64,000 nt of DNA from Clavaria fumosa (Eukaryota; Basidiomycota; Agaricomycetes; Agaricales; Clavariaceae): assembly GCA_951802425.1 (NCBI GenBank), contig OX637799.1:1302001-1366000 (forward strand), in the 5' to 3' direction. The position numbers and the translations under genes are program-made. Below the pieces are notes generated by a model that saw only the letters and a list, made by a program, of their open reading frames with translations, did not search any database and had not been told where the DNA came from. Positions within the stretch are counted from its first letter, which is position 1. The number at the start of each line of letters is the position of its first letter. Of this stretch, positions 17,401-47,900 are shown in pieces.

Positions 17401-17725
17401 ATGGAGAAAGTGGCAGCAGCGATGAAGAAGAGCTATGATAAGGGGAAGTGCCCAAGTCAGGAGTACTCTGAGGGAGATCTGGTCTGGCTAGACACTAGGA
17501 ACCTGAAGATGGACTGGCCCTCTAAAAAGCTTGACAACAAGCAAGCAGGCCCCTTCACAGTTGAGGAGAAGGTGGGACCAGGAGGATACTGCCTCAAGCT
17601 CCCCCATGCATGGCGCATCCACTGTGTCTTCAACAAGCTGTTGCTCACCCCTTTCATTGCCCCCTCCTTCCCTTCCCAAAATCCTCCACCGCCTCCCCCC
17701 ACCACAATTGATGATGACCACCTGG
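14452..17725 (+). mobile_element. B2: family B element lacking leader and gag, pol remnant
   Basis: Starts abruptly with the pre-protease stretch (CILQ.RHTRIGAEVKEE), so gag and leader are missing. Then come decayed protease (14640), RT (15517-15873, YVDD at 15611), RNase H (16012-16566), integrase (16684-17382) and the GPY/F region (17401-17725), with many TGA stops. At 17725 element C is inserted; CCTGG (17721-17725) recurs at 32582-32586 where the chromodomain sentence continues. Pol is inactive. Confidence 0.85.
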
Positions 17726-17958
17726 TGTAAGGCTATAGGCCTTTTCTATTCTTTTATTACATAATATACATACTATAATAGTCTACTAGCATAGCCGCTT
17801 AGGCCATGCTTACATCAGCGGCCCCTAGAGGGCCGCTCACCTATATATATATATATATCGCATCGTGACTGTACAGAGAGGGTAGATCCCTCTACATAGA
17901 ACTACCATACTCAATATACAGTTGAGTCCAGTTCTTTTGAGGGATAGAAAGTATTACA
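17726..17958 (+). repeat. C 5' LTR
   Basis: TGTAAGGCTATAGGCC..GAAAGTATTACA, 233 bp. It contains a strong hairpin (AGCGGCCC 17817-17824, GGGCCGCT 17830-17837) followed by an alternating TA run (about 17842-17858) that may act as TATA element. Confidence 0.9.
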
Positions 17959-17995
17959 ACTTTTTTGAACCTTCAACACAACGAGTGTGGCTAGA

Positions 17996-18935
17996 AATGG
18001 GTTACACCCATATAGCCGCGCAGAAGAAGCACAACAGGAAGGGAGGAGAAACTCCTCCCTTGGTAGGACCTCTGCACGACACAGGCGTCGTGCAGCCAGA
18101 GGGAATAGGACCCTCTGTCGAGCCCAGCGGTGAACCCCCGCTAAGGGCTGACGTGGCGTCACCGGCCCCTGACGACGGCATTAGGTCCGAAACGCCGTCG
18201 ACATGTGGCAATCGCCACGAGGAGGGCGCCACAACGCGCCAAGTCACTGGCGAAGCGCCATCGCTCGAGAAGGCCGGACCTTCAAAAGGAAAGGGCAGAG
18301 AGCCCTTAGAAACCTGCGAGAAGTGGCCGCAAGAGCGGTCAAGCTCGCGGGCTCCCTCCAATAGTGGAGATGAGCCCACAGCGATAGCGCAAGCTAACGC
18401 TGTAGCCGAGAGACTCTCGGACATTCAGGCGGAACTTTCCCGCCAGGACGAAGAGTTTGAGGCTCTTGTAAGGGTGATGAAAAATCGCCAAGCCACTATT
18501 CGGCAACAGCTAAGCGAGGAGGCTACCCATGTTAGGCGGGTGCTGGACTCGCTAGATGAGCAGGGAACCGCGCTAGCGGCTCCCTTACGGCGGCAACGCT
18601 GTGATTCGGTGGAACCCGAAGTGGGGCCTGCCCCGCCGAGTCAGGCGCCAGCCGACCGCGAGGAAGGGTGGCGAAGGGAGAACCGCGTGGATGGTTCTCG
18701 AACCCCTGGCGAACAAGGAATGGAGGGCGGTAGCCCTCGAGAAATAGCGGGGCCGGAGCTGCGGCTTATGTCGCGCTACCCACAGCTGGGCCACAGCTGG
18801 GTCAGCGAGAGCCAACGGGCCGGATGGGTCTGTTTGGATGGATGGAACCGCCCCAGAAGGGGCGGGAGATTACTCGGGAGGTGTCCCCGAGTTCTACAAG
18901 CTACCAGAGTGATGTATTACATTGCTACCTCGTGA
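17996..18935 (+). CDS. C N-terminal ORF, coiled-coil protein (part of gag?)
   Basis: ATG at 17996 (MGYTHIAAQKKH), about 313 codons to TGA at 18933. The first part is Pro/Gly/Ser/Glu-rich and without known domain; residues about 130-215 form a likely coiled coil (AERLSDIQAELSRQDEEFEALV and onward). The frame stops next to the start of the gag frame, which is in +1 relative to it. It may be the N-terminal part of gag separated by a 1-nt indel or by a programmed frameshift; I cannot decide. Function unknown. Confidence 0.55.
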
Positions 18936-19687
18936 TAAAACCTCGCTATTGCCTGAGGCAATAGCTGAGATTAGGGGGATTAAGATTGACCCCCCTGAGC
19001 TTTATGACGGACGAGACGACCTTGTCATCTGGGAAAGGTGGCTCGATGGCCTCCTTAATTACTTCTACTTCTATAGAGTAGTCGGCCCACAGTTGGAGCA
19101 CCAACGTGTTATGCTAGCGGGGTCACGTTTAAGCGGAATAGCCGCTACTTGGTATACCCAAGAAGTAACGGGTCTATCCTGTGCTCCTCGAAGGTGGACC
19201 TTCGAGGAATTGATAACCGCTATGTTTAAGCGGTTCCTGACCGAGGTAACGGCGCAGAAGGCAGTGGATGCCTTCTATCAGGTGAAGTTTACAAAGGCGA
19301 AGGGCGCCTTGGGCTTCTGGAACGAATTGGCCCAGGCGGCAGAGAGAATGCTCACCCCACCTGACGCCGGTACGATGAAAAGGCAGTTCCTTAACGGACT
19401 GCCTAACGAGATGGTGGAGGCCATCTTCAAAACTTGCGCGATTAGCATCGAGTTATCCTCGGTTGAGGATATTATCGACGCTAGTCGCCAAGTGGAAGCG
19501 ACCCTCCACTACCTCCAGCAGCAGAGGGCGGTGCCTTTGGTAGGGAACCAGGCAGGTCCCAAAGGAAACCCGCCTACAGGCAGAGTGCCTGTGGGGCAGA
19601 GGTTTGTGAGACTGCAGCTGTATCGGCCGCACACAGACCGTAGGCCAGGGGAACCTGTTCCCCTGCGGATCGACTGCGCGCGAGACG
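18913..19687 (+). pseudogene. C gag, capsid part, interrupted by A2
   Basis: Retrotransposon gag domain: LVIWERWLDGLLNYFYFYRVVG followed by an Ala-Thr-Trp-Tyr motif and a Phe-Leu-Asn-Gly-Leu-Pro sentence, typical of gypsy capsids. It opens after TGA at 18910-18912; no ATG at the start, so it is probably a continuation of an upstream frame. At 19687 A2 has inserted. Removing A2 and one AGACG copy joins this frame directly to 25589 without a stop. Confidence 0.78.
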
Positions 19688-19992
19688 TGTCAGACTTAGT
19701 CTCACAGTTCACACAACTTAACGTAAGGTCGATGATGATGATACTAACATAAGGGGAAAAGAGTACAAGTAAGAAAATGACAAGGTATATATAGCGAACG
19801 GTTCGGGAGTTGCCGGCGTTCCCACGCTCGGACCCCGTGCGTCACGTGATGCGTCCAAGCCCGGGTCACGTGATTTTCCCATTATGTAATCCACCACCCA
19901 TTCGGGTCACGTGACTCGTCCGCAAACTTCCCACAACTCTTTCACAATCCTTTCTTGGCCTTTCCGACCTGCTTATGTAAGCGATCCTGACA
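19688..19992 (-). repeat. A2 3' LTR (left end)
   Basis: Preceded in the element by the polypurine tract AAGAGGGGGGTGA (minus strand, 20005-19993). It carries three CACGTG boxes, TATA box and the RNA-start motif. Confidence 0.92.
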
Positions 19993-20003
19993 TCACCCCC
20001 CTC

Positions 20004-23000
20004 TTAAGGCTGGGCGTCTCGACCTGCCAACTTCGCCTTGTCAGGGTATTGCTGGAAGAAGTCCCGGAGCAACAGTGCAACATTAGTGAGGTTGCGGCGA
20101 GGTTCCCAGGTGTTCTCCTCTGCAGGGTATCCTAACCACTTCACCAAATACTTCACTCCTCGTCCAACCTTCTTGACATCAAGAATTTCCTCCACCTCAT
20201 ACTCCAAGTGGTCGTCGTCAATCGTGGGGGGCAGGGGTGGAGGCAAGTTCTGGGAGGGGAAAGAGGGAGCAATATACGGGGTGAGTAGCAACTCATTGAA
20301 AACCCGGTGAATGCGCCATGCTCGGGGGAGCTTGAGTCGGTATGCTGCTGGTCCAACCTTCTCTTCGATAGTGAAGGGTCCAGCCCGCTTGTTGTCAAGC
20401 TTCTTGGATGGTCGATCCATTTTCAGGTTCTGGGTATCCAGCCAGACTAAGTCCCCCTTTGAGTATTCACGGCTCAGGCGCTTTCCTTTATCATAGCTAG
20501 CCTTCATCGCATCTGCCGCCTTCCCCATTGCATCCCTGGCTGCTCTTCGGGATTCCATGAGCTTGGCCATCCACTCGTCTGCTGCAGGGTTCACTTCAGA
20601 AGGCAGCCGGATACCACCATTCCAAGGGTGCCGGCCATACTCCAGATAGAAAGGTGTGAATCCAGTGGCTGAGTGCTCATGGTTATTGAGCACGAACTCG
20701 GCTGTGGATAGCCACTCTGCCCAATCATCCTGTAGATGGTCAACATAGGCCCGGAGATACACTTCAACCTCCTGATTGACCCGCTCTGTCTGTCCATCTG
20801 TTTGTGGGTGGAAGGCAGTGCTCAGGTTCGCCTTAACTCCAATCATCCCATAGAACTCCCTCATGAATCTGGACACAAATTGGGTTCCCTGGTCACTCAC
20901 AACTTTCTGCGGGACTCCATGGTCGCGGAAGACCTGGTCTCGAAGGATCTGAGCAGCACCAAGTCCCGTGAGGTCAAGGCCAATAGCTTCGATGAGAGTT
21001 CGTTTTGTAAACTTGTCGACAATGACAAGGATCGCATTGTGACCACGTGAGAGGGGGAAAGGCCCAACAATGTCCCAAGAGATGACTGCCCAGGGGCTCT
21101 CAGGGACAGGGTGCGGATGGAGCGGAGCAGCGCGCCTGGTACAATCAGGCTTGATTTGTTGGCATGTCTCGCATCCACCTGCATACCGATTGGAATCCTT
21201 CACCATGCCCACCCACCAGTAGGACCTCAGCAGAGCCGCCTTCAGTTTCCGTGGGCCAGGGTGCCCTGCGATGGGGAGGTCATGCTCAAAGGTGAGCACT
21301 GCCTCATGTGCTTCTGGGGGCACCCAAGTGATTTCTGCCTTCCGCCAGAGTCCCATCCAATCTCTCGTCCACTCATCATCAAGCTCCTCCGGCTTCTGCA
21401 CATATACCACACTGTTTTTCTGGAGTAGCATCTCCATCTCCGATGTGAACGATGTGCAGGTCTCAGCCTCTGGGAAGACCTGTACTGGTGCATCCTCCTC
21501 CACCATCTCTCCATAATCTTGCCTCTGTGAGAGCGCATCAGCTTTCGTGTTTGACTTCCCAGTACGGTACTTGATCTCGAAGTCAAAGCACTGGAGCTCT
21601 CCAACCCAACAGACCTGCCTCGGTTTCAACTTCTGGGGCTTCCGGAAGTACTGGAGGTTAGCATGGTCCATCCAGATTTCGATAGTCTCTTCCACCCCAA
21701 TCAGGTAAGCCCGCCACTCGCGTAGTGCCCGGATTACAGCCAGGAACTCCTTGTCGTACACATCGTAATTCTTCTCAGCTGCAGTGAGGGCTTTGGAGAT
21801 GTAGTCTACAACTCTCCAAGTCCCATCCACCTGCTGCTGTGAGAGAACTCCTCCAGTGGCCAAGTTGCTCGCATCCATTTCTACCTTCCATCTCCCTTTG
21901 TCTTGTGGTAGAGCCAAGACTGGGGCTGATACTAGTGCCAGGCGGAGATCTTGGAAGGCTGCTTCCTCCTCTTCCTCCCATCTCCACGGGACTTTCCCTG
22001 TCAGCCGGAAAAGTGGTTTTGCCCGGGCAGAGAGGTTCGGGATGTGCCGGCGGAGGTAGTTCAGCATCCCGTTGAATCTCTGTACCTCCTTCACATTTTT
22101 CGGTCTGGGCCAGTTACGGATCGCTGCACCTTTAGCTGGGTCATGCTCTAGATGGTTGTGGGAGATCTTCATCCCCAGGAAGAAAACCTCACTCTTCTCA
22201 AACTCGCACTTGCTGAGTCTGAGACACAGGCCATTCTCCCCAAACTTCTTCAAGACCCGATCCATCCAATACCGATGTGTAGCCAAATCCTCTGCAAACA
22301 CTATAACATCATCGACATAGGCTCGGACATGCCCCCCTGCAATCTCTTCTCTCAACACATGGTTCATGAAGCGCTGGAAGGTGGCAGGCGCATTCTGCAG
22401 CCCAAACCACATAACTGCCGGTTCGAAGAGTCCACGAGGCGTTAGGAAGGCACAGCGGTGCTGATGTTCTGGCCAGACTTGCATTGATGGGAAACCTCCT
22501 TTTGCATCAATCTTGGAATAGATGGTCGCCCCCTTTAACACATCCACAGTGTCTCGTATGAGGGGGAGGGGGTACTTGTCTTTGATTAGATACGAGTTCA
22601 GCCTAGAGTAATCGATGATCGGCTGCAGCTTGTCCTTCTCACGTTTGAAGAAGAAGGGGCTTGCATACAGGGACTTCGAAGGTCGGATTCGTCCAGAAGC
22701 TAGCTGCTCATCCACCCAGCGATTCATTTCCACCATCTCTTCTTGCGTCAGAGAGTATAGCTTAGAGGAGAGGTGTCCAGGGTCTGTTTTAAACTCGATT
22801 TTGATATCAAAGTCAGGGCGGGAGCGGGGGAGCTCATCCCACTTTGCTTCACTAAAAACCAAAGGGTAGCGGCTAGGCCAATCAGGGGTAGGGCCAGTGT
22901 TGGGAAAGCAGGTGTCCGGGATACTGGCTGAGGCCAGGGTACTCGCTTTTGGTGGAACTGAGGGTCGAACAGGAGACCGGTGGCTGTGTGGGGAGGAGGC

Positions 23001-23627
23001 ACAGGTGTTGGGGCAGCGGGTGAGCCTTACTTCAGCTTTCACCCAGTCAATCTCTGGATTATGACGCTTTAGCCAATCATGCCCAAGGATCGCTGTGTGG
23101 GACTGGGTCTTCCCTAGCAGGAAGTGGATCCGCTCCTGGTGGTCGCCAACTGTCACAAGCAGCTCCATCCCATACCGGATCCTACCATCTCTGTTCTGCG
23201 TTCCATCCACATTATACATGGTGATTGGATTCAGCAAGGGAGATGGTTCCAATCCCACTTTTTTTGCCCACTCCAAGTCCATAAAGCAGTTGGTGCAGCC
23301 TGAGTTGACAAGGGCTTTCGTAGTTGCCCCTTTGCCAGTGCTGAGAGCCTCCAGGTGCACCTGGATAGAGAGCTCTCAGGGCATACGCAATAGGGTGTCC
23401 TTCAGCACCTCTGCAAGGTGCTTTGTTGGCTCCACTTGGCTGCTAGTCCCCTTTTCTCTTTTCAGTATTTCACTTTTAGCAGTTTCTGTTTCCGCTTTGT
23501 CCTTCACCTCAGCCCCAATTTGGGTGTGTCTCCGCTGCAAGATAGTGTATTTTGGGATACTAGCTGCGGGTACAGGGACGGGAGGGGGGCTGGGATATCT
23601 ACTCCTGAGACTCCAGTTCAGACTCAC
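20004..23627 (-). pseudogene. A2 pol: protease-RT-RNase H-integrase-chromodomain, one TGA
   Basis: Begins in the -1 frame at the gag stop (GTG 23627) and would give about 1200 residues. After 83 codons TGA at 23376-23378 interrupts it, where A1 has CGA (PRELSIRVHL). From 23375 the frame is open to 20004; an ATG at 23360 gives 1118 residues. Motifs: protease ALVNSGCTNCF, with Asn where relatives have the catalytic Asp (ALVDSG), so the protease is probably dead; RT with AYVDDVIVF (22299-22325); RNase H EMDASN (Met-Asp, usually Thr-Asp); integrase HHCC finger (HPGPRK..CETCQ); DDE core (SWDIVGPFPLS, VVSDQGTQFVS, HPQTDGQTERVNQ); chromodomain KYLVKWLGYPAEENTWEP. Confidence 0.9.
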
Positions 23628-24625
23628 TGGGTCTCGTCTCCAAAATCCGGCTCTTCAACAGGAGCCCTCTTCTCTCTCTCGAGCAAATCCAGGCGGTCTC
23701 GGAGCAGTGCGATCTCGTTCTCATAGTCCTCTGCACTATGTACCTGGCTTTCCACGGTGCGGACCTGCGGCCTCGGGATCTGCGGACGTGTGTCCTGGAG
23801 CTGGCAATCTCTCACCATGTGACCAGCTTGGCCACATCGGAAGCAGGTGCGCAACACTCCAGGGGCACGGGCACGATCCACCACCATGGCATCACCGGCA
23901 TTGGTGGGACGCGGCATGGTGGGAGGGGCAGGGGTGCGGGCCTGCGGCTGGGCCAGGAAGGGACGGGGGGCTGTGGCGAAGCGGGTTTGTTGAGGGAGGG
24001 GGCGGCTGGTTGCAGGCAGAGCTGGACGCACAGAGTTCTGCTGCGCGATGACTCCATCGAGGCGGCGCTGCTGAGCATCTAGCTTTTCGGCAAGTGCCTT
24101 CCACTGCACATAGGTCTCTGGCATTGGCGAAACACCATAGACCTTTCCCACTAGCCTCCTGCTCAGATTCGACTCCAGCCAATGGACCAGGATGTCCGAA
24201 TCGGCCACTTCTGTCATCCCCACTCTTCGGAACATCATTTCGAACCTTGCGAAGAACTCAGGTGCCGTCATGACACCCTGTTTCAACCTTGCAATGTCTG
24301 CAAGGGCAGTCACATGGTCATTCGGGTCATCGAACGCTCGCTTCATCTCTTCCACAAATTCTGCCCAGGTTCCAACCTTGTTGTTACCCAGGATTTCCTC
24401 TCCCTTCACATTTGCCCATTCTGCGGCAAACCCCTTGCCAGTAATTTTGCTGAGGGTGTAGAGGACCTTTGCCAGGTCCGTGGCATAGATTATCGGATTC
24501 GCCATAAACAGGAGGTGGAGTGACCGGAGGAATGTACGGAAATTTCTTTTTTGCCCATTGAATGGGGCAACGACTAAATCCAGCCTCGTGGCATGGACTT
24601 CAGGCAGGGCGACGTGGTCAGCCAT
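23624..24625 (-). CDS. A2 gag with CCHC zinc knuckle
   Basis: ATG at 24625; 333 residues. Capsid domain at the N-terminus (VVAPFNGQKRNFRTFLRSLHLLFMAN), acidic/aromatic helices, a Pro/Arg/Ala-rich linker (about residues 185-255), the zinc knuckle CFRCGQAGHMVRDC, and a C-terminal Glu-rich helix. It ends with TGA at 23624, overlapping the start of pol in the -1 frame; no slippery heptamer is obvious. It packages the element RNA. Intact. Confidence 0.9.
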   Translation of the reverse strand: MADHVALPEVHATRLDLVVAPFNGQKRNFRTFLRSLHLLFMANPIIYATDLAKVLYTLSKITGKGFAAEWANVKGEEILGNNKVGTWAEFVEEMKRAFDDPNDHVTALADIARLKQGVMTAPEFFARFEMMFRRVGMTEVADSDILVHWLESNLSRRLVGKVYGVSPMPETYVQWKALAEKLDAQQRRLDGVIAQQNSVRPALPATSRPLPQQTRFATAPRPFLAQPQARTPAPPTMPRPTNAGDAMVVDRARAPGVLRTCFRCGQAGHMVRDCQLQDTRPQIPRPQVRTVESQVHSAEDYENEIALLRDRLDLLEREKRAPVEEPDFGDETQ

Positions 24626-25266
24626 CACAGACCCTGGTGGTGGTGATGGGGTTTCGGGGACGTCGGTAACAGGGGAATCGGGGGGGAGCTGGGCTCGACC
24701 CGGTCTCGGACGCAGGCGCTGTAAATAGAATTCCGGGCCTTGGGCACTCAGGATTTCTTCGATCTCTTAGCAGTCCTGTCCTCTCAGGCTGCTCTCTATG
24801 TATCTAGGTACTTATAGAACTCTTATTCTATAAAACTTGTTGCTAGCGTGGGGCCCAAATGGTGTCCCAGGTGGTCACTCCACAACTCCTAGTGAGTTGC
24901 CCGTGTGCCCTTCTGACAATGGTCACAGAGCAAGGGCCCTGTCCACTGGACCAGGAAACTACAGAAAAACTATGTATAGGGCCTTTCCGTGCCCTGTACA
25001 CTACACGATTCACTGGTACGTAGCTGTAAAGCAAAGTTCCGGGCCTTTGGCACTCGGTGTCTCTTGGGGAGGGTCACAGTAGACTTCCTCCGGGTCTGGT
25101 CACGTGTATCTACACACAGTAAAAATTTCACACGGTTCTGTTGCACACTGTGGGCAGGGTAAAGAGAAAGAGGATGAGGGGGATAAGCTGTCACAGAGTG
25201 TGACAGTTTGAGATAGGGGTCCAGGCTAGCCGGGTTAGGACACGGGGCTAGGGCGGACAGGGGTTG

Positions 25267-25276
25267 ATGTTAGTAT
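25267..25276 (-). promoter_or_regulatory. A2 primer-binding site, self-priming type
   Basis: On the minus strand ATACTAACAT, just inside the 5' LTR, pairs with ATGTTAGTAT of the same LTR (plus-strand 25332-25341), located shortly downstream of the TATA box (plus-strand 25377-25385). Confidence 0.7.
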
Positions 25277-25278
25277 TG

Positions 25279-25583
25279 TGTCAGACTTAGTCTCACAGTT
25301 CACACAACTTAATGTAAGGTCGATGATGACGATACTAACATAAGGGGAAAAGAGTACAAGTAAGAAAACGACAAGGTATATATAGCGAACGGTTCGGGAG
25401 TTGCCGGCGTTCCCACGCTCGGACCCCGTGCGTCACGTGATGCGTCCAGGCCCGGGTCACGTGATTTTCCCATTATGTAATCCACCACCCATTCGGGTCA
25501 CGTGACTCATCCGCAAACTTCCCGCAACTCTTTCACGATCCTTTCTTGGCCTTTCCGACCTGCTTATGTAAGCGATCCTGACA
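25279..25583 (-). repeat. A2 5' LTR (right end)
   Basis: 305 bp. Three CACGTG palindromes at 25434-25439, 25458-25463 and 25499-25504 upstream of the TATA box. It is followed by AGACG, the duplicated target site in C gag. Confidence 0.92.
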
Positions 25584-28500
25584 AGACGAGCGCGTGCAAA
25601 CCGGAGGAAGCAAACCCCGGCTAGAACCGCCTAAGGCGGTGCCCAAGATTGGGGTACGAGGCGGAGAGGAGCAGAAAGCTCCTCTAACATGCTATATGTG
25701 CGGGAAAGCAGGGCACTACGCAAATGTGTGCCCTCAGTCACAGCGAAAGCCAGAGGCTTTGAGGGGAAATGTAAGGAACTACGCCTTACAAGAGGAGCCG
25801 GGCGAGTTGGAGCCCGAGGAACCGCCGGAAACACCGGCAGTTGAAAGCGAGGAGCCAGAGGGTGAAGCCCTACCGGAGGAAGTCGTGGAAGACGACTATG
25901 CTGGTCGCGGGGACCAGTACGATTCGGATGAGCTCGAGGAGGAGGCAGAAAGCGACCAGGTCGCTGGAATCCGGGAATTAGAAGAGGATGAAGTCCTCTA
26001 CATGACAGAAGTACGTGTCGGCCATGTCGACGACAGGCCATTTCGGGCGCACATCCGGAAAGAGCGGACAGGATCGCACCTGGTAGTAACAAAGGAGGCT
26101 AGGCAATGCCTTGCGGCCTACATCACCATGAACAGTGTAAAAGCGTATACGCTTTTCGATTCTGGAAGTACTCCGGACCTGATGAGCCCAGACTTTGCCC
26201 GGGTGACGAAGGTACCAACCTTCCAACTGGATAATCCAGTTCCTATACAACTCGGCTGTATCGGCAGCTGATTGACGATCACACACGGATGCCACGTAGC
26301 GGTGGATTTGGGAGGAATACTGGTGGAGGACCAGTATTTTGATATAGCGAACATCGACCACTATGATATCATAGTCAGAACGGCGTTCATGTATGACCAC
26401 CATGTGATACTGGATGTGCACTGACGTGCAATCCGGATTGGCGAAGGGAAGGGAAAAACCCTTCAGGCGATGTCGCCCAGTGAGGAGATGGAAGCATTAC
26501 GCGTCCATATATCGGCTAAGAACGCGCCAAGGAAGGGAGCTCAAAAGAGCTGACTACACTTGGGCCCCCGGGATGCGGGTGAGCCCTGGAAGGGGGGAGA
26601 GGCTAACGCCTCTGTAAAGATAGACGACGTCTACCTCGAAGGCAGGCGTGAGTACTGGTTTAACCAGTACACTGAGCTCTTCAGGGGAGTTCCCCCCAGA
26701 CCACCGCCGTTTCGGGCGGTGAACCACCGCATACCCTTAATAGACGAAAAGCAAGTCTATAATTATTACCTGCCTCGGTGTGCTGAGGCATTTAAGGAAC
26801 AATTCCTTGAGAAAGTGAACCGTTATATTACTAACGGTTGGTGGGAAGCAGGAGTGGCATCGCAAGCAGCTCCTATGTTATGCATACCAAAAAGCAGCCG
26901 GAACCCGCTGCTACGGACAGTCGTGGACTGTCGGAAATGGAATGCGAACACAGTACGGGATATTACCCCGTTGCCTGATCAGGATCAGATCAGGCAGGAC
27001 GTGGCTAGAGCCGCGTATAGGTCAAAGATTGACCTATCGGATGTGTACAAGCAAGTACGCATAGAGCCTGAGGACGTGTGGAAGACGGCGTTCGCGACCG
27101 TCTTGGGCACCATGTTCTCACAGGTTATGCAGATAGGGGATTGTAATGCCCCTGCTACCTTCCAGCGCCTGATGACGCATATATTTCGTCATCAATTGGG
27201 AAAGTACATGCATGTGTACTTAGACGATGTATTCGTCTTCTCCAAGACCCTGGAGGACCATGAGTGTCACTTAAAGACGGTCTTTGAGACCCTCAAAGGC
27301 GCAAGCCTTTTCTTGAGCAAGAAGAAGTGCTCGTTATACGCGAAGAGCGTAGATTGCTTAGGGCATATTATAGATGCCCGAGGAATCCACGTCACAGTGG
27401 ATAAAATGGATAAAATCCGTAACTGGAAAACGCCAACAAGCGTTAACGAGGTGCAGAGGTTCCTCGGATTAGTACAGTACATCAGACAGTTCATGCCCGA
27501 TCTGTCCGCTTACACTGGCCCTTTGGCTAGTCTGTGTAGTGAAACGTGAACGTTTCACTGGAGACCACTCCATGACAAGTGCATGGAGATGATTAAGGCA
27601 TTGGCATGTAAAACGCCAATATTACGCCCAGTAGATGCGGCAGTACAGGAGCCAATCTGGCTCGTGTGCGACGCGTCAGTGTCGGGCGTAGGGGCCATGT
27701 ATGGCCAGGGAAAGACATGGGAAACCTGCCGTCCGGCGGGGTTTATGTCTAAAAGGTTTAGCCTGGCCCAGTTTAGTTACAAAACCTGGGACCGGGAGGC
27801 CTTAGCGATTGTCGAATCACTACAGAAATGGGAGGATAAACTCCTTGGTAGACGAATCAACGTGGTCACAGACCACGAAGCGCTGGGGTTCTTTAAGAAC
27901 CAAACACACTTGTCTGGCTGGCAGGCCAGGTGGATGGAATATATAAAGAGGTTTAACTACTCCATCACTTACATTAAAGGCAAGAGCAACAAAGTTGCAG
28001 ATGGCCTTTCGTGTTACCATATGAGTGATGCGACGGATGAGATTCATCCGGATCACGAGTACGTAAAGGCGGACGTTCGCCTTGACCCGGAAGGGGACGA
28101 GTTGCCCCGCGGACGCCTGGAGGAGGTGCGCACACTACGAGTACGAGCACCTGCCGCGGACCAGGAGACCGAGCAGGAGCAACGGCCGCCTATGCCCCAA
28201 GCGGACAGGGATGTGAGGGACGAGACGCTCATGCCCTTAAGGCCCCGCGTGGAAGGGGGGGATAGCAGGATGCTGCAAAGCATCCATGACGGCTATGAAC
28301 AGGATCGCCTGTTCAAAATAATTTTGGAGAAACCGGGAAACTACACTGGTTTTAAGATCAGGGATGACCTGATCTTAGCTGAGAATAAAAAAGGAGACGA
28401 GGTGCTCTGTGTGCCTCGTACCCTTCATGAAGGGAAAAGCATCCCTGGGAGAATAATCCAGGAAGCCCATGCGGTCCTAGGACACATGGGGGCGCGGATA

Positions 28501-29817
28501 ACGATGGATTACATCCGCCGTTACTACTGGTGGCCATCGGTGTCTAAAGACATCGATAAGTTTTGCTTGTCGTGCGGCGTGTGCCAGACGAGCAAGACTT
28601 CCCCTCAGAAGCCACAGGGGCTTCTACACACCCTTCCGATCCCCAGGCGGCCCTGGGAATCAATAGGAATGGACTTCGTAGGTCCATTTCCTATGTCGAA
28701 AGAGGCAGACTACCTCTGGGTGGTGATCTGCCACCTCACTTCACTGGTACACCTAGTACCAGTTACCGTTTTGGTAACAGCAGCAGAGCTAGCCTGGCTC
28801 TTCCTAACCCATGTAGTGAGACTGCATGGGTTGCCAGGATCGATTGTGTCCGATCGTGATCCGAGATTTACATCTGCCTTTTGGCAGGAAACACACTGAC
28901 TACTCGGTGTCAAGCTGCGGATGTCCACAGCTTTCCATCTGCAGACGGATGGAGCGATGGAACGGTCGATCCGATCCGTGTCTCAGATCCTCCGATCGGT
29001 GGTCCAACTGGACCAGACAGACTGGGCGGAGCGAATCCCAATGGTCGAATTTGCCACCAACACATCAATAAGCGCGTCGACGGGGTTTGCCCCGTTTGAG
29101 CTCACCTATGGGTACATGCCCCAGATGATGGCAGAGTTGCCAGACGACCTCCAGGCGGTGCCCAGAGGGGTACGGATGTTCGCAGAGAAAGCCGCGCTCA
29201 ACCTTGCAATGGTGCACAACGTGATTATAGAAAGTCGCGTCCACCAAACATTTTACACTAACCAGCGTAGACAGGCAGAGCACCCGTTTAGAGAGGGAGA
29301 ATTAGTCTACCTCTCAATGGAGAACTTGAATCTCCCTAAAAAACGAGCTAGAAAGCTCATGCCGAAGTTTATTGGGCCATACCCAATACGGTCATGTAGA
29401 CCGGAATCGTCTACGTACAAGCTGGAGCTCCCTGACTCGCTAAAGTCGAGGAGAATCCACCTGACGTTCCATGTCAGCCAGTTGCGGCGACATGAACCAA
29501 ACGATGACGCGTTGTTCCCACGTCGTGAAGTGAAAGTCTTTTATGACTTTGGTGTGGATCCAAAGGAGGAATGGCTAGTAGATGCCATTATTGGCCATAG
29601 GTGGGAAGGCCGCCACCTGGAATGCGAGGTTCGATGGAACCTCGGGGATATGACCTGGGAGCCGTACATGGGGGTCAAAGAGCTGGCTGCTCTAGACCAT
29701 TACCTTGAACTACAAGGTGTAGACTCGTGGAGGGCACTACCTAGGCGCCCTCAAACAGAGCGTGGAGTAGTAAACGCGATCGAGCCAGACCGCTGGGTCG
29801 TTAGCCACAGTGACTAA
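25584..29817 (+). pseudogene. C gag zinc knuckle-protease-RT-RNase H-integrase-chromodomain, five TGA codons
   Basis: One frame from the A2 boundary to TAA at 29815. Domains: CCHC knuckle CYMCGKAGHYANVC (about 25690), protease-like TLFDSGSTPDL (26152), RT with VYLDDVFVF (27214-27240), RNase H (about 27655-28010), integrase finger (H..H..CLSCGVCQ, 28480-28590), DDE core (GMDFVGPFP, IVSDRDPRF, AFHLQTDGAMERS), chromodomain (about 29545-29720). Five in-frame stops (ending at 26271, 26424, 26552, 27549 and 28899) are all TGA; no TAA or TAG occurs. CGA would fit the protein at each place. Polyprotein inactive unless the stops are read through. Confidence 0.85.
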
Positions 29818-29904
29818 GTCACGTGGTGGCTCCACCGTAAGGTACAAAACCTTAAGAGGGCCCGCCCTCTTTTTCTCTTTTTTCCTCATCAGCCATTTGT
29901 TACA

Positions 29905-32052
29905 ATGGATGATCCGATGGGGGAAACCCCATCTCCTCGCGCTACCTGTGCCGCTGCTGCTACCGCCGCTGCCTCTACCACTACCGCCGCCATCCCTGGC
30001 CTTGCGCCAGGGAACTCGCTGCCGACGAGCATCGTCGGAACGGCTGGGTTGTCCCAGCCATCGTTGTCACAAGGGGAGGAAACTCTCCCCTGGGTTCAGG
30101 ATCGCATGATCCATGCGATCACCCATGAATCCCGGTGCACTCAGTGTATCGGATTCCGTCATCACATCTTCGAGTCGCTGCTGCACTCGGACGAAGCGTT
30201 TCAACAAACGCTTAAGGAAGCGCAGGAAAGCGCTAAGCGTGAGCTCGAGCCGGAGCTCGGAATGATACAATGCAAGTTGGATGACTTGCATGAAGAGTAT
30301 GAGAAGGGCAATGCCCTTTGCGCTGGGCACCAGCAAAAGCTTGAAAAAGCTTACGATAGCCTGGATAAGGTCGAGGCCGACCTTAGAAAGGCGAAGGAGA
30401 AGGTTCTCTCCTTGACAGAAAAGTTGGCAAGTGCCAACGAGGAGCTCGCCGCGGTGCGAATGGCGGCGAAAGGGAAGGGACCTGACAGGGATCCCTTGGA
30501 GCAGGACCCTAAAAGAGCCCGCACTGCTGTCTCATACGCGGACATAGCACCGCCTATGGGGGACGTGGACGTCCCCATGAACATTGAGGAGGGGTATCCC
30601 CCTCTTCCACCTGCTGGTGTTAGCCAGCAGAACCCCGATGCCTCACTGAGGCATAAACGAACGTTTGCGGAGACGGTGCTTGCGCCTCTGACAAGGGGTT
30701 ATCCCTTTAATGCCCCCCGCCCGGACAGGGCTCCGGATGGATATCCCTGGCCATCGGGGATGTCCATCAAGCCTGGGGCGTGGGCTGTTGAGTTGAAGAC
30801 GGTTGAAGAGGTGATAGCCCTCAACCAGCAGGCGCACCATGGAGCACCTGACGGCAGTTATGATATGACTGCCATAATGAAGATGCGATGGGCTGTTAAG
30901 GAGGCCCAAAAAAACGCGGCAGCGGGAAAGCTACCTACGCCAGTTGAGGACTGGCTGTTGAGGAACTGGAGAGTTCCTGCTGGCGTCGAGAAATTGGCAG
31001 ACTGGGTGGCACGCCATCTGCAGGGGCAGATGTTGCGAGAGAGCGGAGGGATGGGCGACCCATCCCTGAGGGCAGGACCCTTGGAAGTCGCAGGAGGGGG
31101 AGCACCCTCCTATCCATCGTACCAGACATTGCCGCTGACAGTGGCAAGAGTGGTTGCGCCTCCCATTAGGGAGTTTGTAGAGACTGGGGAGCCGTTGCTC
31201 CCCCAAGAGCTGTGGCTCTCCTTTGTAGGGGAGAAGGGAGAAATTCCCCCTATGAACCCGAAAGGCGACAGAGGCGCAGTGTCAGACCTGTGCTGCTGGG
31301 CTGCCGACATAAGGATGGGCAGAGCGGCCGTCCTTGGTATTGATAAGGACGGGGACTCACCCCTGTCCTTTGCACGTAAGGTGGCTATCTGGCGTACCAT
31401 AATGGCGTGCGCACCGTCCCAGGCCCGAATGCGGCGCCTGTTTCTAGCAATGGCTGTAGCCCTCTTTGTGTCAAAGGGGGTGTACGCGCAGGCCATTAAA
31501 GGGAGAGTCCTCCCTGCACGACGTTCCAGGCACTGGAACACAAAGATAACGCCAACCGTCGCACAGACGATTGAGGCATTTGTAGATGCCAGAGTCTCCG
31601 TTGGGGAAATGGAGCTCTGGGACGAGTTTGTACTCGCGTGGGCACACGAGTACGTGCGAAAGGGGAATGCCCCCTTGGACGATGATATCCAGCTAGCGCT
31701 GGGTGAACGGGAGAAGCCTCCCATACCGCCCCGGGCATATGCACTGCTAGAGTGCATAGGGCGTGGGGCGCGTCCATGCCGTCTTCGGTTAAGCGAGAAG
31801 GCAGGAGACGAACGGAGGGGCGATGCACCCCTGGAAGACAGTGGAAGCACGTCCACCATTAGAAACCCCCTAGGGCTACCTATTGGGGGTTTAACAATAT
31901 CCCAGACAGAGGGTGCGGGGCCCTCTCAAAAACAAAAGAAAGCGGCTAAGTCATCAGCCACTAAGGCTGCGAAGGGGCCTGTTGTGTCGTCGCCCGACTG
32001 GAGCAACGACGAGGGCGAGCCGCCGTGCGACTACGAGCAGGGCTCGGACTAA
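29905..32052 (+). CDS. C extra ORF of unknown function (715 codons)
   Basis: Intact sense ORF between integrase/chromodomain and the 3' LTR, ATG 29905 to TAA 32050. Seen: an Ala/Thr-rich start, a His/Cys pair region (CTQCIGFRHH, residues about 80-90), a long coiled coil (about residues 100-190), a basic motif (DPKRARTA) that could be a nuclear signal, a middle region with conserved-looking Trp/Pro (AWAVELKTVEEVIALNQQAHHG; WLLRNWRVPAGVEKLADWV) and a Lys/Ser-rich acidic tail. No signal peptide or membrane segment, so not an envelope protein. I do not recognise the family. It is free of stops while pol has five. Confidence 0.75.
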   Translation: MDDPMGETPSPRATCAAAATAAASTTTAAIPGLAPGNSLPTSIVGTAGLSQPSLSQGEETLPWVQDRMIHAITHESRCTQCIGFRHHIFESLLHSDEAFQQTLKEAQESAKRELEPELGMIQCKLDDLHEEYEKGNALCAGHQQKLEKAYDSLDKVEADLRKAKEKVLSLTEKLASANEELAAVRMAAKGKGPDRDPLEQDPKRARTAVSYADIAPPMGDVDVPMNIEEGYPPLPPAGVSQQNPDASLRHKRTFAETVLAPLTRGYPFNAPRPDRAPDGYPWPSGMSIKPGAWAVELKTVEEVIALNQQAHHGAPDGSYDMTAIMKMRWAVKEAQKNAAAGKLPTPVEDWLLRNWRVPAGVEKLADWVARHLQGQMLRESGGMGDPSLRAGPLEVAGGGAPSYPSYQTLPLTVARVVAPPIREFVETGEPLLPQELWLSFVGEKGEIPPMNPKGDRGAVSDLCCWAADIRMGRAAVLGIDKDGDSPLSFARKVAIWRTIMACAPSQARMRRLFLAMAVALFVSKGVYAQAIKGRVLPARRSRHWNTKITPTVAQTIEAFVDARVSVGEMELWDEFVLAWAHEYVRKGNAPLDDDIQLALGEREKPPIPPRAYALLECIGRGARPCRLRLSEKAGDERRGDAPLEDSGSTSTIRNPLGLPIGGLTISQTEGAGPSQKQKKAAKSSATKAAKGPVVSSPDWSNDEGEPPCDYEQGSD

Positions 32053-32348
32053 GTGTCCGAGCCCTTTAAAAACATATGCCTACCCCGCAGGATGAGACAG
32101 CGGCACTTGGGGCACCCCCCACCGGGGCGTGCCACTCGTGACACGCTGTCCAACTGGGGGCAGGTCACGCAGACCACCGGGTAGGACCCATCAGCACCAG
32201 GCGAAGGCCCCAGGAGGGGATCGCGCCCGGTGACATGCGGTAACCCTGCCCAAGGGGATGCGCCCCTTGTAATGCTATTCTACTTCTGCTCGTCGTCCCG
32301 CGCCGCCCACGTGTTGCCTCTGGTTGGGGCCTCTCCAGAGGGGGAGCG
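32053..32348 (+). other. C 3' untranslated region and polypurine tract
   Basis: About 300 bp, GC-rich, non-coding, with further hairpins (e.g. AAGGGG/CCCCTT near 32252-32270). It ends in a purine-rich AGAGGGGGAGCG just before the LTR, the likely plus-strand primer. Confidence 0.65.
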
Positions 32349-32581
32349 TGTAAGGCTATAGGCCTTTTCTATTCTTTTATTACATAATATACATACTATA
32401 ATAGTCTACTAGCATAGCCGCTTAGGCCATGCTTACATCAGCGGCCCCTAGAGGGCCGCTCGCCTATATATATATATATATCGCATCGCGACTGTACAGA
32501 GAGGGTAGATCCCTCTACATAGAACTACCATACTCAATATACAGTTGAGTCCGGTTCTTTTGAGGGATAGAAAGTATTACA
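32349..32581 (+). repeat. C 3' LTR
   Basis: 233 bp, three transitions different from the 5' LTR. Followed by CCTGG (32582-32586), the second target-site copy. Confidence 0.9.
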
Positions 32582-32881
32582 CCTGGAGTACGAGGTGGAG
32601 GCAATCCTTGATGTCAAGAAGGTGGGGCATGGGGTGAAGTACTTGGTGAAGTGGTTGGGATACCCAGTGGAGGAAAACACATGGGAGCCCTGTAGGAACC
32701 TCACCAATGTAGCACTGCTGCTCCGGGACTTCTTCCTCGCCCACCCTGACAAGGCCAAGCTAGCTGGTCAAGATGCCCAGCCTTAAGAGGGGGGTGATGT
32801 TAGGATTGCTTACCTAAGCCATCCCAAAAACAGGAGTTGTGGAGAAACTAGAGAAGATAGTTGGAAGGTCACATGACCTGT
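32582..32881 (+). mobile_element. B2: chromodomain end and start of its 3' LTR
   Basis: Continues B2 pol after C: the chromodomain YLVKWLGYPVEENTWEP, stop TAA at 32783-32785, polypurine tract, and the first 84 bp of a family B LTR (32798-32881). The LTR is cut by D1; CTGT (32878-32881) matches CCGT at 49006-49009. Confidence 0.85.
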
Positions 32882-45274: not shown

Positions 45275-46825
45275 TTACTTAGAAGACGACTCGCCAAGGA
45301 GGAGCATCCGGAGCAGCTCCGCTCCGGCCTTCACCTGGTCCGCCCCCCTCTCCATCATCTCCAGCGCCCTATCGAGCGCCTCCCTCCCGGACACCCCTCG
45401 CGCCACCTCCCGCTCCTTACCCTTCCGACTTGGTCCCGCCTCCGCCTTCTTCTTCTTTGCCGGCGGCTCCTCCACCAGCTCCACACTGGTATCCTCCTCA
45501 ATCTCGTCCTCCTCCTCCGGCGTCGTCTCCTCGCGAACCGGTACCCGCGTCGCACCTCGCCTCGGCCTCTTACTTCCGCTCGCTCCCGCCGCCTTCGGAC
45601 CTGTTCCGATACGTTAGCAAATGCGGACCCGATACCTTCTCGACATACCTTCCGTTCCGGACACCGCCGCTCTCTCTGTTTTCGCTCCTGAAACACACCT
45701 ATCATTTGTCTCATCATGAAAAATAAAAAGAATACCACTTACCTCGCACAGCCGACAGACTGCACGATACCTTATACGTCCGGCACCACCGGCACGCTAT
45801 CCCCTCCACTCCGTAGCACGCCCGCCACTTCCGGGTGCACTCCTTGCACCCCGGAACGTGCTCCTAATCATTATATCAGACGTCGAAAAAGCCTCACATA
45901 TCTTAATTAACCACTCACCTTATCTCCAGGCTGCCGCGCAGCCCGGGACTCTATGTCGCTCTTCGCCCCGCCTCTCCTCCCTCGCCCTCGCTCCGCTGCC
46001 TTCCGCCTCGCGATCTCCACCCACACCGGAGTCGCCATCATCCGCGCACCGTCCCGGTGCACGAACATCGGCTCCTCCACCGACTGCTCGCCTCCCCCGG
46101 CCACCGCACTCACCGCCGCCGCCTCGATAACACCGACGGGCGTCACCCCGTCGGTTCCCCACACGGTCCGATGACCGTCCGGATCCTCCCCTGCCGCCAC
46201 CTCGTCCACACGCAGCTCTCCGGCGTCCGGTGATATCGTCGTCGTTGTTACCGCCGCTGCACCGGACTCCGCCGCTCCCGTCGTCGTCGTTGTTGCCGCC
46301 GCCGCCGCCTCGCCCTCGTCGTCGCTGTCACTTACGACAATTAAGCGCGCCCGGGCAAGGCGCGCCCTCTTCTCGGCAGCCCTCGCCGCCTCCGCCCGCC
46401 TCTCCTCCGCCTCCGCCTCTGCTGCGGCCCGCTCAGTAGCCGCCCTCTCCTCGCTCGTGCGCTGTTTCTCGGCCTCGACCTCCTCCCGCCTTCTCGTCCG
46501 CTCAGCGGACCACTCGTCCCCGCGGAGCTTCCGCCACTTCTTGAGCCTTCGCGCGACCCGGACGAGTCCCTCGTCCACCTCCACGTCGTCGTCGATCGCT
46601 GCCACATATCCGGCAAGAAAATCGTCCTAAAAACGTTGTCAGTGCGATACAAAAAAGTACGAAAGATTCTCGTTCACGCACCGCGTCACCCGCATACGTC
46701 CCCACCCACTCCGCGCACTCTCCATCCTGCCCCCGATCCGGCAACTCCTCGCCCGGCGCCATGGCCTGCGCCTCGGTCATCGCCTGGACTGCGTTTCGAA
46801 AGATTGAAGAATCGAAGTTTTCCAT
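45275..46825 (-). CDS. Antisense spliced gene in D2: Cys-rich coiled-coil protein
   Basis: Unknown function. My model has six exons... five introns are not all needed: exons 46825-46682, 46626-45919, 45863-45743, 45687-45649 and 45600-45275 (five exons, four introns), all GT..AG with agreeing phases, 445 residues, ATG 46825 to TAA 45275. Seen: a Met-Glu-Asn-Phe-Asp start, an Ala/Glu/Arg-rich coiled coil (residues about 75-130), a Ser-Asp-Ser-Asp acidic patch, Val/Thr runs, then a Cys cluster (CKEC..WRACYG..CRWC...KVSC, about residues 290-318), two basic patches (KRPRRG, AKKKKAEAGPSRKGKERE; likely nuclear signal) and a C-terminal helix. The Cys cluster suggests metal and nucleic-acid binding. 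The start is conserved in D1. Confidence 0.72.
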
Positions 46826-46982
46826 TGTCGGAGAGTTGACGTGTTGCTGTCGCTGGAGAAAACACAAGGGTGTGTTTGGACCTATGTGCACCCACACGAC
46901 GCGTACTTCACGATCAACAAACCGTTATTTGGCCTTGTTTGGTTGCAACCGAGGGCGGTTGCATTTTCAGCCCCCGGGAGAA

Positions 46983-47900
46983 TGTAAGGACCATATGCGA
47001 TCTAAACACGGAAACATGACAGATACCGACTATCCAGATGTTTTGCGATCCAAAGAAATTACGTGCGATACGAACCGATAACGATCCGACACCGTCCGAT
47101 AACGACCGATAGTATCCGATACATGTCCGATGTCGGACACTTCGGTCTTCAATCCCCCGTGACGATCACAGCCCACCGCTCTCACACACCGCCCACGCCT
47201 CTCTATTTCACCTCTCCAGCACGGTCAGCGCTCGACATACACACTATTCCATTCCCATTCCTTTATTTCATATACCATGCTGTAAATTTCATATTATGAT
47301 CCCTTTCAACCATTCAATCGTTTAAACGTTTCAAACCCTTTGCAGTACCTTGTCCATTGTTCTTAGTACCCCTTTGCTGTACCAGCCCCACTTTCCTTCA
47401 GTTTATGAGCGGTCCGGACATTTGCTAGTTATCGGACATTTCATTCCTCCGAGCTACTCATTTCCCTTGTGATATAACTCCTTCATGTAACCCTTCACGC
47501 GACATGGCGCTGTTCCATGTGTTTTCCGGACATTTCCGTACATTCCAATTTGCTGTACTTACAGAACTGTACTTAAGTACACTCCGGACCTCTCTGAAAT
47601 ACAGCTTTCTGAACCCCTTCTCTCTGTTAGAAACCTCACCTAAGCTCACCCGTCGTCGCAACCTTCGATCCGCTGGCCTCCGTCATTGCTGGCCCTTCGT
47701 CTTATCGCACCATCCTTATCGGATTTTATCGGACACATAGCAGAATATCCCGGACACCGTATATTTCTATTTCTCACACATTTTGAATTCATACTCCACA
47801 TCCTCAAGGGTGTTTGGTGAATCTCTAACGCCTTACAGGAACCCCTGAAGGACTTGACTGTAATCAAGCAGTTGCAGCAAGAACCGTATTACCCACTACA
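46983..47900 (+). repeat. D2 3' LTR
   Basis: 918 bp, about six differences from the 5' LTR, preceded by GGGAGAA. Confidence 0.9.

What the first reader, a model, noticed from the sequence alone, without database searches (positions are those of the whole stretch)
17726..32581. Element C is tiled end to end with short perfect inverted repeats, inside coding sequence
Seen directly. Outside the nested A2, element C contains perfect hairpins every few tens of bases. Examples (left arm/right arm): 18039-18048/18052-18061 (10 bp), 18072-18080/18087-18095 (9), 19185-19195/19198-19208 (11), 19646-19654/19657-19665 (9), 26139-26156 (18-bp palindrome), 26225-26232/26234-26241 (8), 26316-26323/26331-26338 (8), 26360-26375 (16-bp palindrome), 26652-26660/26662-26670 (9), 26818-26825/26832-26839 (8), 26972-26980/26988-26996 (9), 27017-27025/27029-27037 (9), 27538-27546/27551-27559 (9), 28743-28750/28756-28763 (8), 29625-29632/29637-29644 (8), 30100-30108/30112-30120 (9), 30194-30201/30206-30213 (8), 30270-30277/30284-30291 (8), 30366-30373/30378-30385 (8), 31328-31335/31345-31352 (8). 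Rough estimate for random sequence: with loops of 0-9 nt, about 0.3 stems of 9 bp or more in 9 kb; I found at least 10 by eye. They lie in gag, pol, the extra ORF, the 3' region and the LTR, so codon function does not explain them. Ideas (inference): a reverse transcriptase that converts imperfect palindromes into perfect ones by template switching; selection for a densely folded RNA (packaging, escape from or entry into RNA silencing); or a packaging code read by gag or the extra ORF.
Basis: partly seen in the sequence, partly recalled or inferred. Interest (0 to 1): 0.95.

Follow-up and report, generated by a model that had tools for sequence, protein, structure and literature searches.

The report
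Retrotransposon tiled with perfect hairpins
A fungal jumping-gene family carries short perfect mirror-image hairpins along its whole length, genes included, and differences between its copies show the copying slip called template switching at some of these hairpins, so its sequence may be shaped by how it is copied and not only by what it encodes.

Summary
Confirmed. All 20 listed hairpins are exact. Outside nested A2, element C (Ty3/gypsy-type, 17726-32581) holds 157 perfect stems of 6 bp or more against about 24 in shuffles, and 40 of 8 bp or more against about 1.2; A2 and the flanks are near chance. All seven ORFs exceed codon-preserving shuffles.

The stems are ancestral to a family of dozens of copies and mostly decay there by C>T/G>A. 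Comparing copies caught template switching directly: spacer inversions inside perfect hairpins at four sites in five copies, and one hairpin pair that is A-T in three copies, C-G in ten and mismatched in twelve.

Inside helices G.U is not favoured over A.C, folding is strand-symmetric, and amino acids in arms are as conserved as elsewhere. This fits recurrent template switching during the element's own replication, filtered by protein function, somewhat better than selection for an RNA fold. Against it, single-base changes show no overall palindromising bias. Whether the element's reverse transcriptase or host polymerases made the recent events is unresolved. New variant of a known kind.

The parts
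17726..32581 (+). Element C, Ty3/gypsy-type LTR retroelement interrupted by A2; 5-bp target duplication CCTGG at 17721-17725 and 32582-32586
   Evidence: sequence, LTR pair, Pfam domains
17726..17958 (+). 5' LTR (TG...CA)
32349..32581 (+). 3' LTR
19687..25577 (-). Nested element A2 (limits from its 300-nt terminal repeats), stem density near chance: internal control
17922..18935 (+). ORF1 (no Pfam match), 11 stems >=6 bp vs 2.9 codon-shuffled
18922..19686 (+). gag-like ORF by position, up to the A2 insertion (no Pfam match), 12 vs 2.5
25594..26271 (+). ORF with CCHC zinc knuckle, 12 vs 2.2
26560..27549 (+). Reverse transcriptase (RVT_1), 24 vs 3.6
27583..28899 (+). RNase H and integrase zinc-binding domain, 19 vs 3.9
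28921..29817 (+). Integrase C-terminal part (SH3_Tf2-1), 12 vs 3.0
29905..32052 (+). Extra ORF, 715 aa, no Pfam match, one distant homolog found; 35 vs 9.9
18083..18086 (+). Spacer inversion in copy L028 (hairpin 18072-18095); exact relative to the spacer as it stands in copy L010, one transition away from the commonest spacer
27547..27550 (+). 4-nt spacer inversion in copy L047 (hairpin 27538-27559), exact relative to the spacer of 12 other rows
29923..29926 (+). Exact 4-nt spacer inversion in copy L043 (hairpin 29916-29933)
31641..31642 (+). 2-nt spacer inversion in copies L020 and L022: two independent events, or one event spread by descent or recombination
25823..25839 (+). Hairpin whose pair 25826/25836 is A-T in 3, C-G in 10 and mismatched (C.T 8, T.T 3, C.A 1) in 12 of 25 rows

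Best explanation
Element C belongs to a replicating retroelement lineage whose DNA has been palindromised by recurrent template switching. Where a short quasi-palindrome with a hairpin-sized loop exists, a polymerase that has copied one arm switches to that arm (nascent strand) or to the complementary strand, copies it, and returns. This makes the arms identical and sometimes inverts the spacer. Changes the proteins cannot bear are lost, so what accumulates is a dense tiling of perfect hairpins, mostly of 6-11 bp, through coding and non-coding parts. SHOWN here: the excess, its restriction to C among the elements examined, its ancestry to the family, spacer inversions in single copies, one pair matched in two ways. 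INFERRED: that this process made the bulk of the stems, and that it acts during reverse transcription, because other retroelement loci in the same genome do not have it.
For: Spacer inversions with two or more changed bases at four hairpins in five copies; the control transformations gave 0 (reverse) and 1 (complement, the same GG>CC site); single-base cases are no more than the control, 3 vs 3. Pair 25826/25836 is A-T in 3, C-G in 10 and mismatched in 12 of 25 rows. Private transversions that create a stem of 6 bp or more: 18 (two of them in one cluster of L027), against 10 had the other transversion occurred; shared ones 4 against 0; of 198 and 70. Interior mismatches fixed in 80% of rows are A.C 9 and G.T 4 of 18 (one A.C site is counted in both LTRs). 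MFE z is alike on both strands: -3.9 and -4.1 in C right, -4.9 and -4.2 in C left; A2 -0.3 and -0.6. All codon registers are enriched: 4.7, 5.5, 6.9-fold. Ten other 2-kb loci with RT hits in this genome: 68 stems vs 45.4 shuffled (1.5-fold), C 6.6-fold.
Against: Over all 198 private transversions the derived base does not give longer stems than the alternative base (69 vs 71, p=0.93; shared 34 vs 26, p=0.37), so most recent mutation is ordinary. Non-coding parts, where protein function cannot filter, are not denser than coding ones: 11.9 vs 15.1 per kb without the TA run. Amino acids in arms are as conserved as elsewhere (extra ORF 40 of 59 in arms vs 207 of 357 outside), so no damage to proteins is seen. 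Resident copies show no arm homogenisation: where both CpGs of a paired step changed, pairing was kept 120 and lost 148 times (uncleaned 178 and 168). At stem ends G.T exceeds A.C (25 vs 9). The arms are purine-rich on the 5' side (79 vs 33 stems), which the model does not predict. No DNA of a related element from another species could be examined.
Confidence: 0.52

Rival explanations
1. Selection for a densely folded nucleic acid (packaging, protection from silencing, or a gag/extra-ORF code), with template switching only as one supplier of perfect stems and spacer inversion as a side effect.
For: Lineage (shared by 3 or more) transversions are sparse in arms: 4 in 1921 arm sites vs 27 in 5677 others (p=0.15); shared T>C/A>G 8 vs 52 (p=0.04), at third positions 2 vs 37 (p=0.0008), but polarity there is confounded by C>T decay; shared among older copies 4 vs 26 (p=0.07). 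Arms keep conserved residues. Sense-strand loops are purine-rich, 360 of 573. At stem ends G.T exceeds A.C, 25 vs 9 of 128. Non-coding parts are not denser. Genome-scale ordered RNA structure is known in RNA viruses (listing with starts of abstracts).
Against: No preference for G.U over A.C inside helices: 6 vs 8, 4 vs 9. MFE excess alike on both strands. No common loop motif seen by eye (list). All codon registers enriched. No compensation in resident copies, which is expected of dead copies either way. Arm copying would also slow change in arms, so the depletion does not separate the two.
Confidence: 0.27
2. Host DNA polymerases did the switching during chromosome replication; C copies merely offer many hairpins.
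For: The recent inversions are private to single copies or possibly recurrent, as post-insertion events would be. Template switching at inverted repeats is known for cellular DNA replication (PMC8604942, abstract; PMC8794818, abstract and passages). The L028 inversion is equally explained by CpG decay before inversion.
Against: It would act on all families alike, but A2 and ten other loci with RT hits have at most a mild excess. It cannot by itself explain stems already present in the replicating lineage of one family.
Confidence: 0.13
3. Ordinary consequence of base composition, codon use or decay (RIP-like or CpG deamination), or an assembly artefact.
For: C>T/G>A dominates differences between copies (1484 of 1865 minor-allele counts).
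Against: Dinucleotide and codon shuffles fail to reproduce it. C>T decay changes stems in copies where others keep them. Each of the 30 rows examined has 38 to 51 stems of 6 bp or more in a 2.2-kb core.
Confidence: 0.02

Closest known systems
Coding palindromes of Nematomorpha mitochondrial genes (PMC6649704; abstract and Discussion read)
   Same: Perfect inverted repeats inside coding sequence with conserved amino acids in the arms; the authors name template switching as one possible mechanism
   Different: Arms there reach 284 bp in organelle genes; here mostly 6-11 bp, in an LTR retroelement, with spacer inversions seen between copies
Template switching at inverted repeats in S. cerevisiae (PMC8604942; abstract read)
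   Same: Arm homogenisation and spacer inversion as mutation signatures
   Different: There events in 39 protein-coding genes of a cellular genome; here a whole element carries the presumed outcome
Template switching that creates and maintains RNA hairpins (PMC8794818; abstract and passages read)
   Same: Perfect stems and loop inversions explained by intra- or interstrand switching
   Different: There in rRNA and microRNA genes, with conserved loop sequences; here a mobile element with no loop motif seen by eye
Genome-scale ordered RNA structure of RNA viruses (listing and starts of abstracts only)
   Same: Folding energy below shuffles along the genome
   Different: Here the excess is alike on both strands and G.U is not favoured inside helices
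Ty3/gypsy elements of basidiomycetes
   Same: LTRs, zinc knuckle, RT, RNase H, integrase zinc-binding and SH3_Tf2-1 domains; named protein relatives from Serendipita, Pisolithus, Meripilus, Amanita, Trametes, Sparassis, Grifola among the 120 of 839 hits listed
   Different: Hairpin tiling; extra 715-aa ORF after pol

Membership tests
Ty3/gypsy LTR retroelement | Two LTRs with short target duplication | tested here: met
   LTR pair 98% identical, CCTGG on both sides
Ty3/gypsy LTR retroelement | Order RT-RNase H-integrase | tested here: met
   RVT_1, RT_RNaseH, Integrase_H2C2, SH3_Tf2-1 in order on 26560-29817; the integrase core model itself was not matched in this copy but is present in homologs
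Ty3/gypsy LTR retroelement | Primer binding site | tested here: inconclusive
   Sequence after the 5' LTR read by eye: no obvious tRNA match; not searched systematically
Template-switch palindromisation | Excess of perfect short inverted repeats with short spacers | tested here: met
Template-switch palindromisation | Spacer inversion in individual copies | tested here: met
   four centres with two or more changed bases vs 0 and 1 in the two control transformations
Template-switch palindromisation | Arm homogenisation: new changes tend to perfect stems | tested here: inconclusive
   One pair matched two ways; stem-creating transversions 18 vs 10 and 4 vs 0, but overall 69 vs 71
Template-switch palindromisation | Event occurs during the element's reverse transcription | not testable with these tools
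   needs unintegrated cDNA or an in vitro assay
Genome-scale ordered RNA structure (GORS) | Folding energy below sequence-order shuffles along the genome | tested here: met
   mean z about -4 to -5 in C, 23 windows of 200 nt
Genome-scale ordered RNA structure (GORS) | Structure is that of the sense RNA (G.U tolerated, sense stronger than antisense) | tested here: inconclusive
   Both strands alike; inside helices A.C 9 vs G.T 4, at stem ends G.T 25 vs A.C 9

The most novel reading that the evidence does not exclude
The reverse transcriptase of this family habitually folds back on hairpins during DNA synthesis, so that replication cycles rewrite the genome towards perfect palindromes and restore damaged arms from their partners: a retroelement that carries a built-in local copy of part of its own sequence and evolves under a self-templating, palindromising mutation pressure.
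Probability: 0.33. Interest if true: 0.88.

Novelty: new variant of a known kind. Interest (0 to 1): 0.75.

Why it matters
Template switching at inverted repeats is known as an occasional mutation. Here a whole 9-kb multi-gene element seems to carry its accumulated result, and dozens of copies in one genome form a natural record of it. It would make testable how far a mutation mechanism, rather than selection on RNA, can create and keep hairpins in coding sequence, and it warns that dense perfect hairpins are not in themselves evidence of a functional RNA fold.

Tried and rejected
Wobble test: no G.U preference inside helices, mixed at helix ends. Arm-copy test on proteins (one arm conserved, the other deviant): no significant asymmetry (RT p=0.22, RNaseH-IN p=0.94, IN p=0.17). 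Compensation of paired CpG decay: none (178 kept, 168 lost, but 34 of the 178 come from one hairpin that is TG/CA in nearly all rows and overlapping pieces were counted twice; cleaned, or 77 and 76 distinct patterns). A sister subfamily near contig ends (L063, L064) proved to carry largely the same hairpins decayed by C>T, so it gave no deeper view. The 5'-purine asymmetry of arms was first taken as a strand signal and dropped: a hairpin's 5' arm is the same on both strands. The idea that non-coding parts are denser was dropped: the raw 22.1/kb falls to 11.9/kb without the TA run. The 27369 T/A variant was considered as a spacer inversion and rejected on reading the rows. The model of the extra ORF is poor (mean pLDDT 42; a long helix at 79-188 is its clearest feature), so no fold search was made. 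Literature: among the papers listed (15, 15, 12, 15, 1 and 1 shown) none is about hairpin-tiled LTR elements; only listings were seen except where stated.

Limits: in the first copy alignment minus-strand loci had not been turned; only its per-copy stem counts are used (these do not depend on strand), and repeats the alignment correctly. leave out L064 and L068, and one search leaves out L064 and masks part of L068, because of large deletions or misaligned ends. Copies were kept for a piece only if over 90% of it was covered: 13, 24, 29, 27 and 12 for pieces p1, p3, p4, p5, p6; piece p2 (one copy) was dropped, and 30251-30879 was not compared between copies. Neighbouring pieces overlap; searches count overlapping positions once, one search does not.
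Full report
Check of the observation. All 20 arm pairs in the finding are exact. Counting every perfect Watson-Crick stem with loop 0-12, the two parts of C hold 157 stems of 6 bp or more, 89 of 7, 40 of 8 and 15 of 9 or more; the means of 20 dinucleotide-preserving shuffles sum to 23.8, 5.9, 1.15 and 0.35. Nested A2 has 20 against 14.7, the left flank 56 against 55.0, the right flank 95 against 78.6; the flanks have a mild excess of longer stems (left 8 of 8 bp or more against 3.7, right 32 of 7 bp or more against 19.6). Codon-preserving shuffles give an excess for each of the seven ORFs of C, and none for A2 pol, 9 against 8.5. Twelve of the 157 are overlapping readings of one TA run in the LTRs; removing them changes nothing.

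What carries it. C is an LTR element with TG...CA LTRs of 233 bp, a CCTGG target duplication, a CCHC knuckle, RT, RNase H, an integrase zinc-binding domain and a Tf2-1-like SH3 domain, followed by a 715-aa ORF for which one homolog was found among the 7,994 candidates scored, P0121, 59% over 53% of the query. The genome is 48.8 Mb in 17 contigs. Named protein relatives of the pol are from basidiomycetes (120 of 839 hits listed). The RT query gave 123 matches, all listed at 70% identity or more; the pol DNA query 41; the extra ORF 63. These counts are lower bounds and include partial matches.

History of the stems. In 30 aligned rows (the window and 29 copies) of a 2.2-kb core the stems are shared, and 38 to 51 stems of 6 bp or more occur in every row. 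Differences between copies are mainly C>T and G>A (1484 of 1865 minor-allele counts). So the stems existed in the replicating ancestor and now mostly decay. Decay is blind to pairing: where both CpGs of a paired CpG step have changed, pairing was kept 120 times and lost 148 times, 77 and 76 distinct patterns over 92 steps (the uncleaned count was 178 and 168).

Template switching seen. A scan of the copies for hairpin interiors replaced by their own reverse complement found four centres with two or more changed bases; the same scan with plain reversal gave none, and with plain complement one, the same GG>CC site. Single-base cases were 3 in the scan and 3 in the complement control, so they carry no weight. 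The four are L047 (CGAA to TTCG), L043 (GAAA to TTTC), L028 (exact relative to the spacer of copy L010, one transition from the commonest spacer) and L020 with L022 (GG to CC). For the last, the nearest relatives of each carrier by pol transversions (L035 for L037, L040 for L038) belong to elements whose 3' ends, L016 and L021, lack it, so it is either recurrent or spread by recombination (the assignment of LTR loci to pol loci is by coordinates). In hairpin 25823-25839 the pair 25826/25836 is A-T in L060-L062, C-G in ten rows including the window, and mismatched in the other twelve; the direction of change is not settled.

Results against a strong version. Of 198 private transversions, 69 give a longer best stem than the other possible transversion would and 71 a shorter one; for 70 shared ones it is 34 and 26. 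Only the tail favours stem creation: 18 against 10 (two of the 18 lie in one cluster), and 4 against 0. Shared transversions are fewer in arms (4 of 31, where a quarter of sites are arms), but p is 0.15, and 0.07 among older copies. Non-coding parts are not denser than coding ones, 11.9 against 15.1 per kb without the TA run; free of a protein filter, they would be expected to be.

RNA fold as rival. MFE z-scores are about -4 to -5 on both strands of C and near zero in A2 and two flank stretches. Mismatches inside otherwise perfect ancestral helices, fixed in 80% of rows, are A.C 9, G.T 4, others 5. At stem ends G.T is not above its background in the window copy (21 of 144 against 16.3%), while among ends fixed in 80% of rows G.T is 25 and A.C 9 of 128, so ends are mixed evidence. 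Loops are purine-rich on the sense strand, 360 of 573 against 55% overall. Amino-acid conservation in arms is not different from elsewhere, and all three codon registers are enriched 4.7 to 6.9-fold. On balance sense-RNA selection is possible but not supported by the interior mismatches or by a strand difference.

Specific to C? Ten other 2-kb loci with RT hits in this genome have 68 stems against 45.4 shuffled; the highest single ratio is about 2.2, and L071 and L076 exceed all 30 of their shuffles. C stands alone at 6.6-fold. A process of the host would be expected to touch all families; this is the main reason, an inference, to place the process in the element's own replication.

Mechanism proposed. 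Intrastrand fold-back or strand switching at quasi-palindromes with hairpin-sized loops homogenises arms; interstrand copying inverts spacers, as described for cellular replication (PMC8604942 abstract; PMC8794818 abstract and passages) and named as one possible mechanism for hairworm mitochondrial coding palindromes (PMC6649704 Discussion). That reverse transcription offers ample single-stranded and displaced DNA for this is general knowledge of LTR elements, recalled, not from a call. Purifying selection then keeps the protein-compatible outcomes.

Change made on checking. The recount of non-coding density removed an apparent support for the mutational model, and the stem-end G.T count is now set beside the interior one; the odds were moved from 0.55 to 0.52 for the best explanation, from 0.25 to 0.27 for the RNA-fold rival, and from 0.35 to 0.33 for the novel case.

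Verdict. A real and very strong feature, not the subject of any paper listed in the searches made here, best read as palindromisation by template switching, with the polymerase still to be identified.

Noticed in passing
element C, stems with loops 3-9: The 5' arm of the hairpins is purine-rich: 66 stems against 22 with loops 3-9, but 13 against 11 with loops 0-2; nine other RT loci 25 against 26, codon shuffles 1361 against 1253, and A2 the opposite, 0 against 11. The same on both strands by construction; unexplained.
   Followed up: partly
window 29905-32052: Extra 715-aa ORF after pol with a predicted long helix (79-188) in a poor model; one distant homolog (P0121) among the 7,994 candidates scored.
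   Followed up: partly
L063, L064 and similar hits: A subfamily at about 78-81% RT identity, with stops, has many hits near contig ends (judged by eye), as if subtelomeric.
   Followed up: no
G000:C3:4648343-4649008 (in L072): An RVT_1 match inside an open frame of 4352 aa in AT-rich DNA (31% G+C); nature not examined.
   Followed up: no
window 46000-47000: A G+C-rich kilobase (64%) with 8 stems of 6 bp or more, the densest bin beyond 33 kb.
   Followed up: no
copies L034-L062, core 26600-28800: C>T/G>A excess between copies, consistent with CpG deamination or RIP-like decay.
   Followed up: partly
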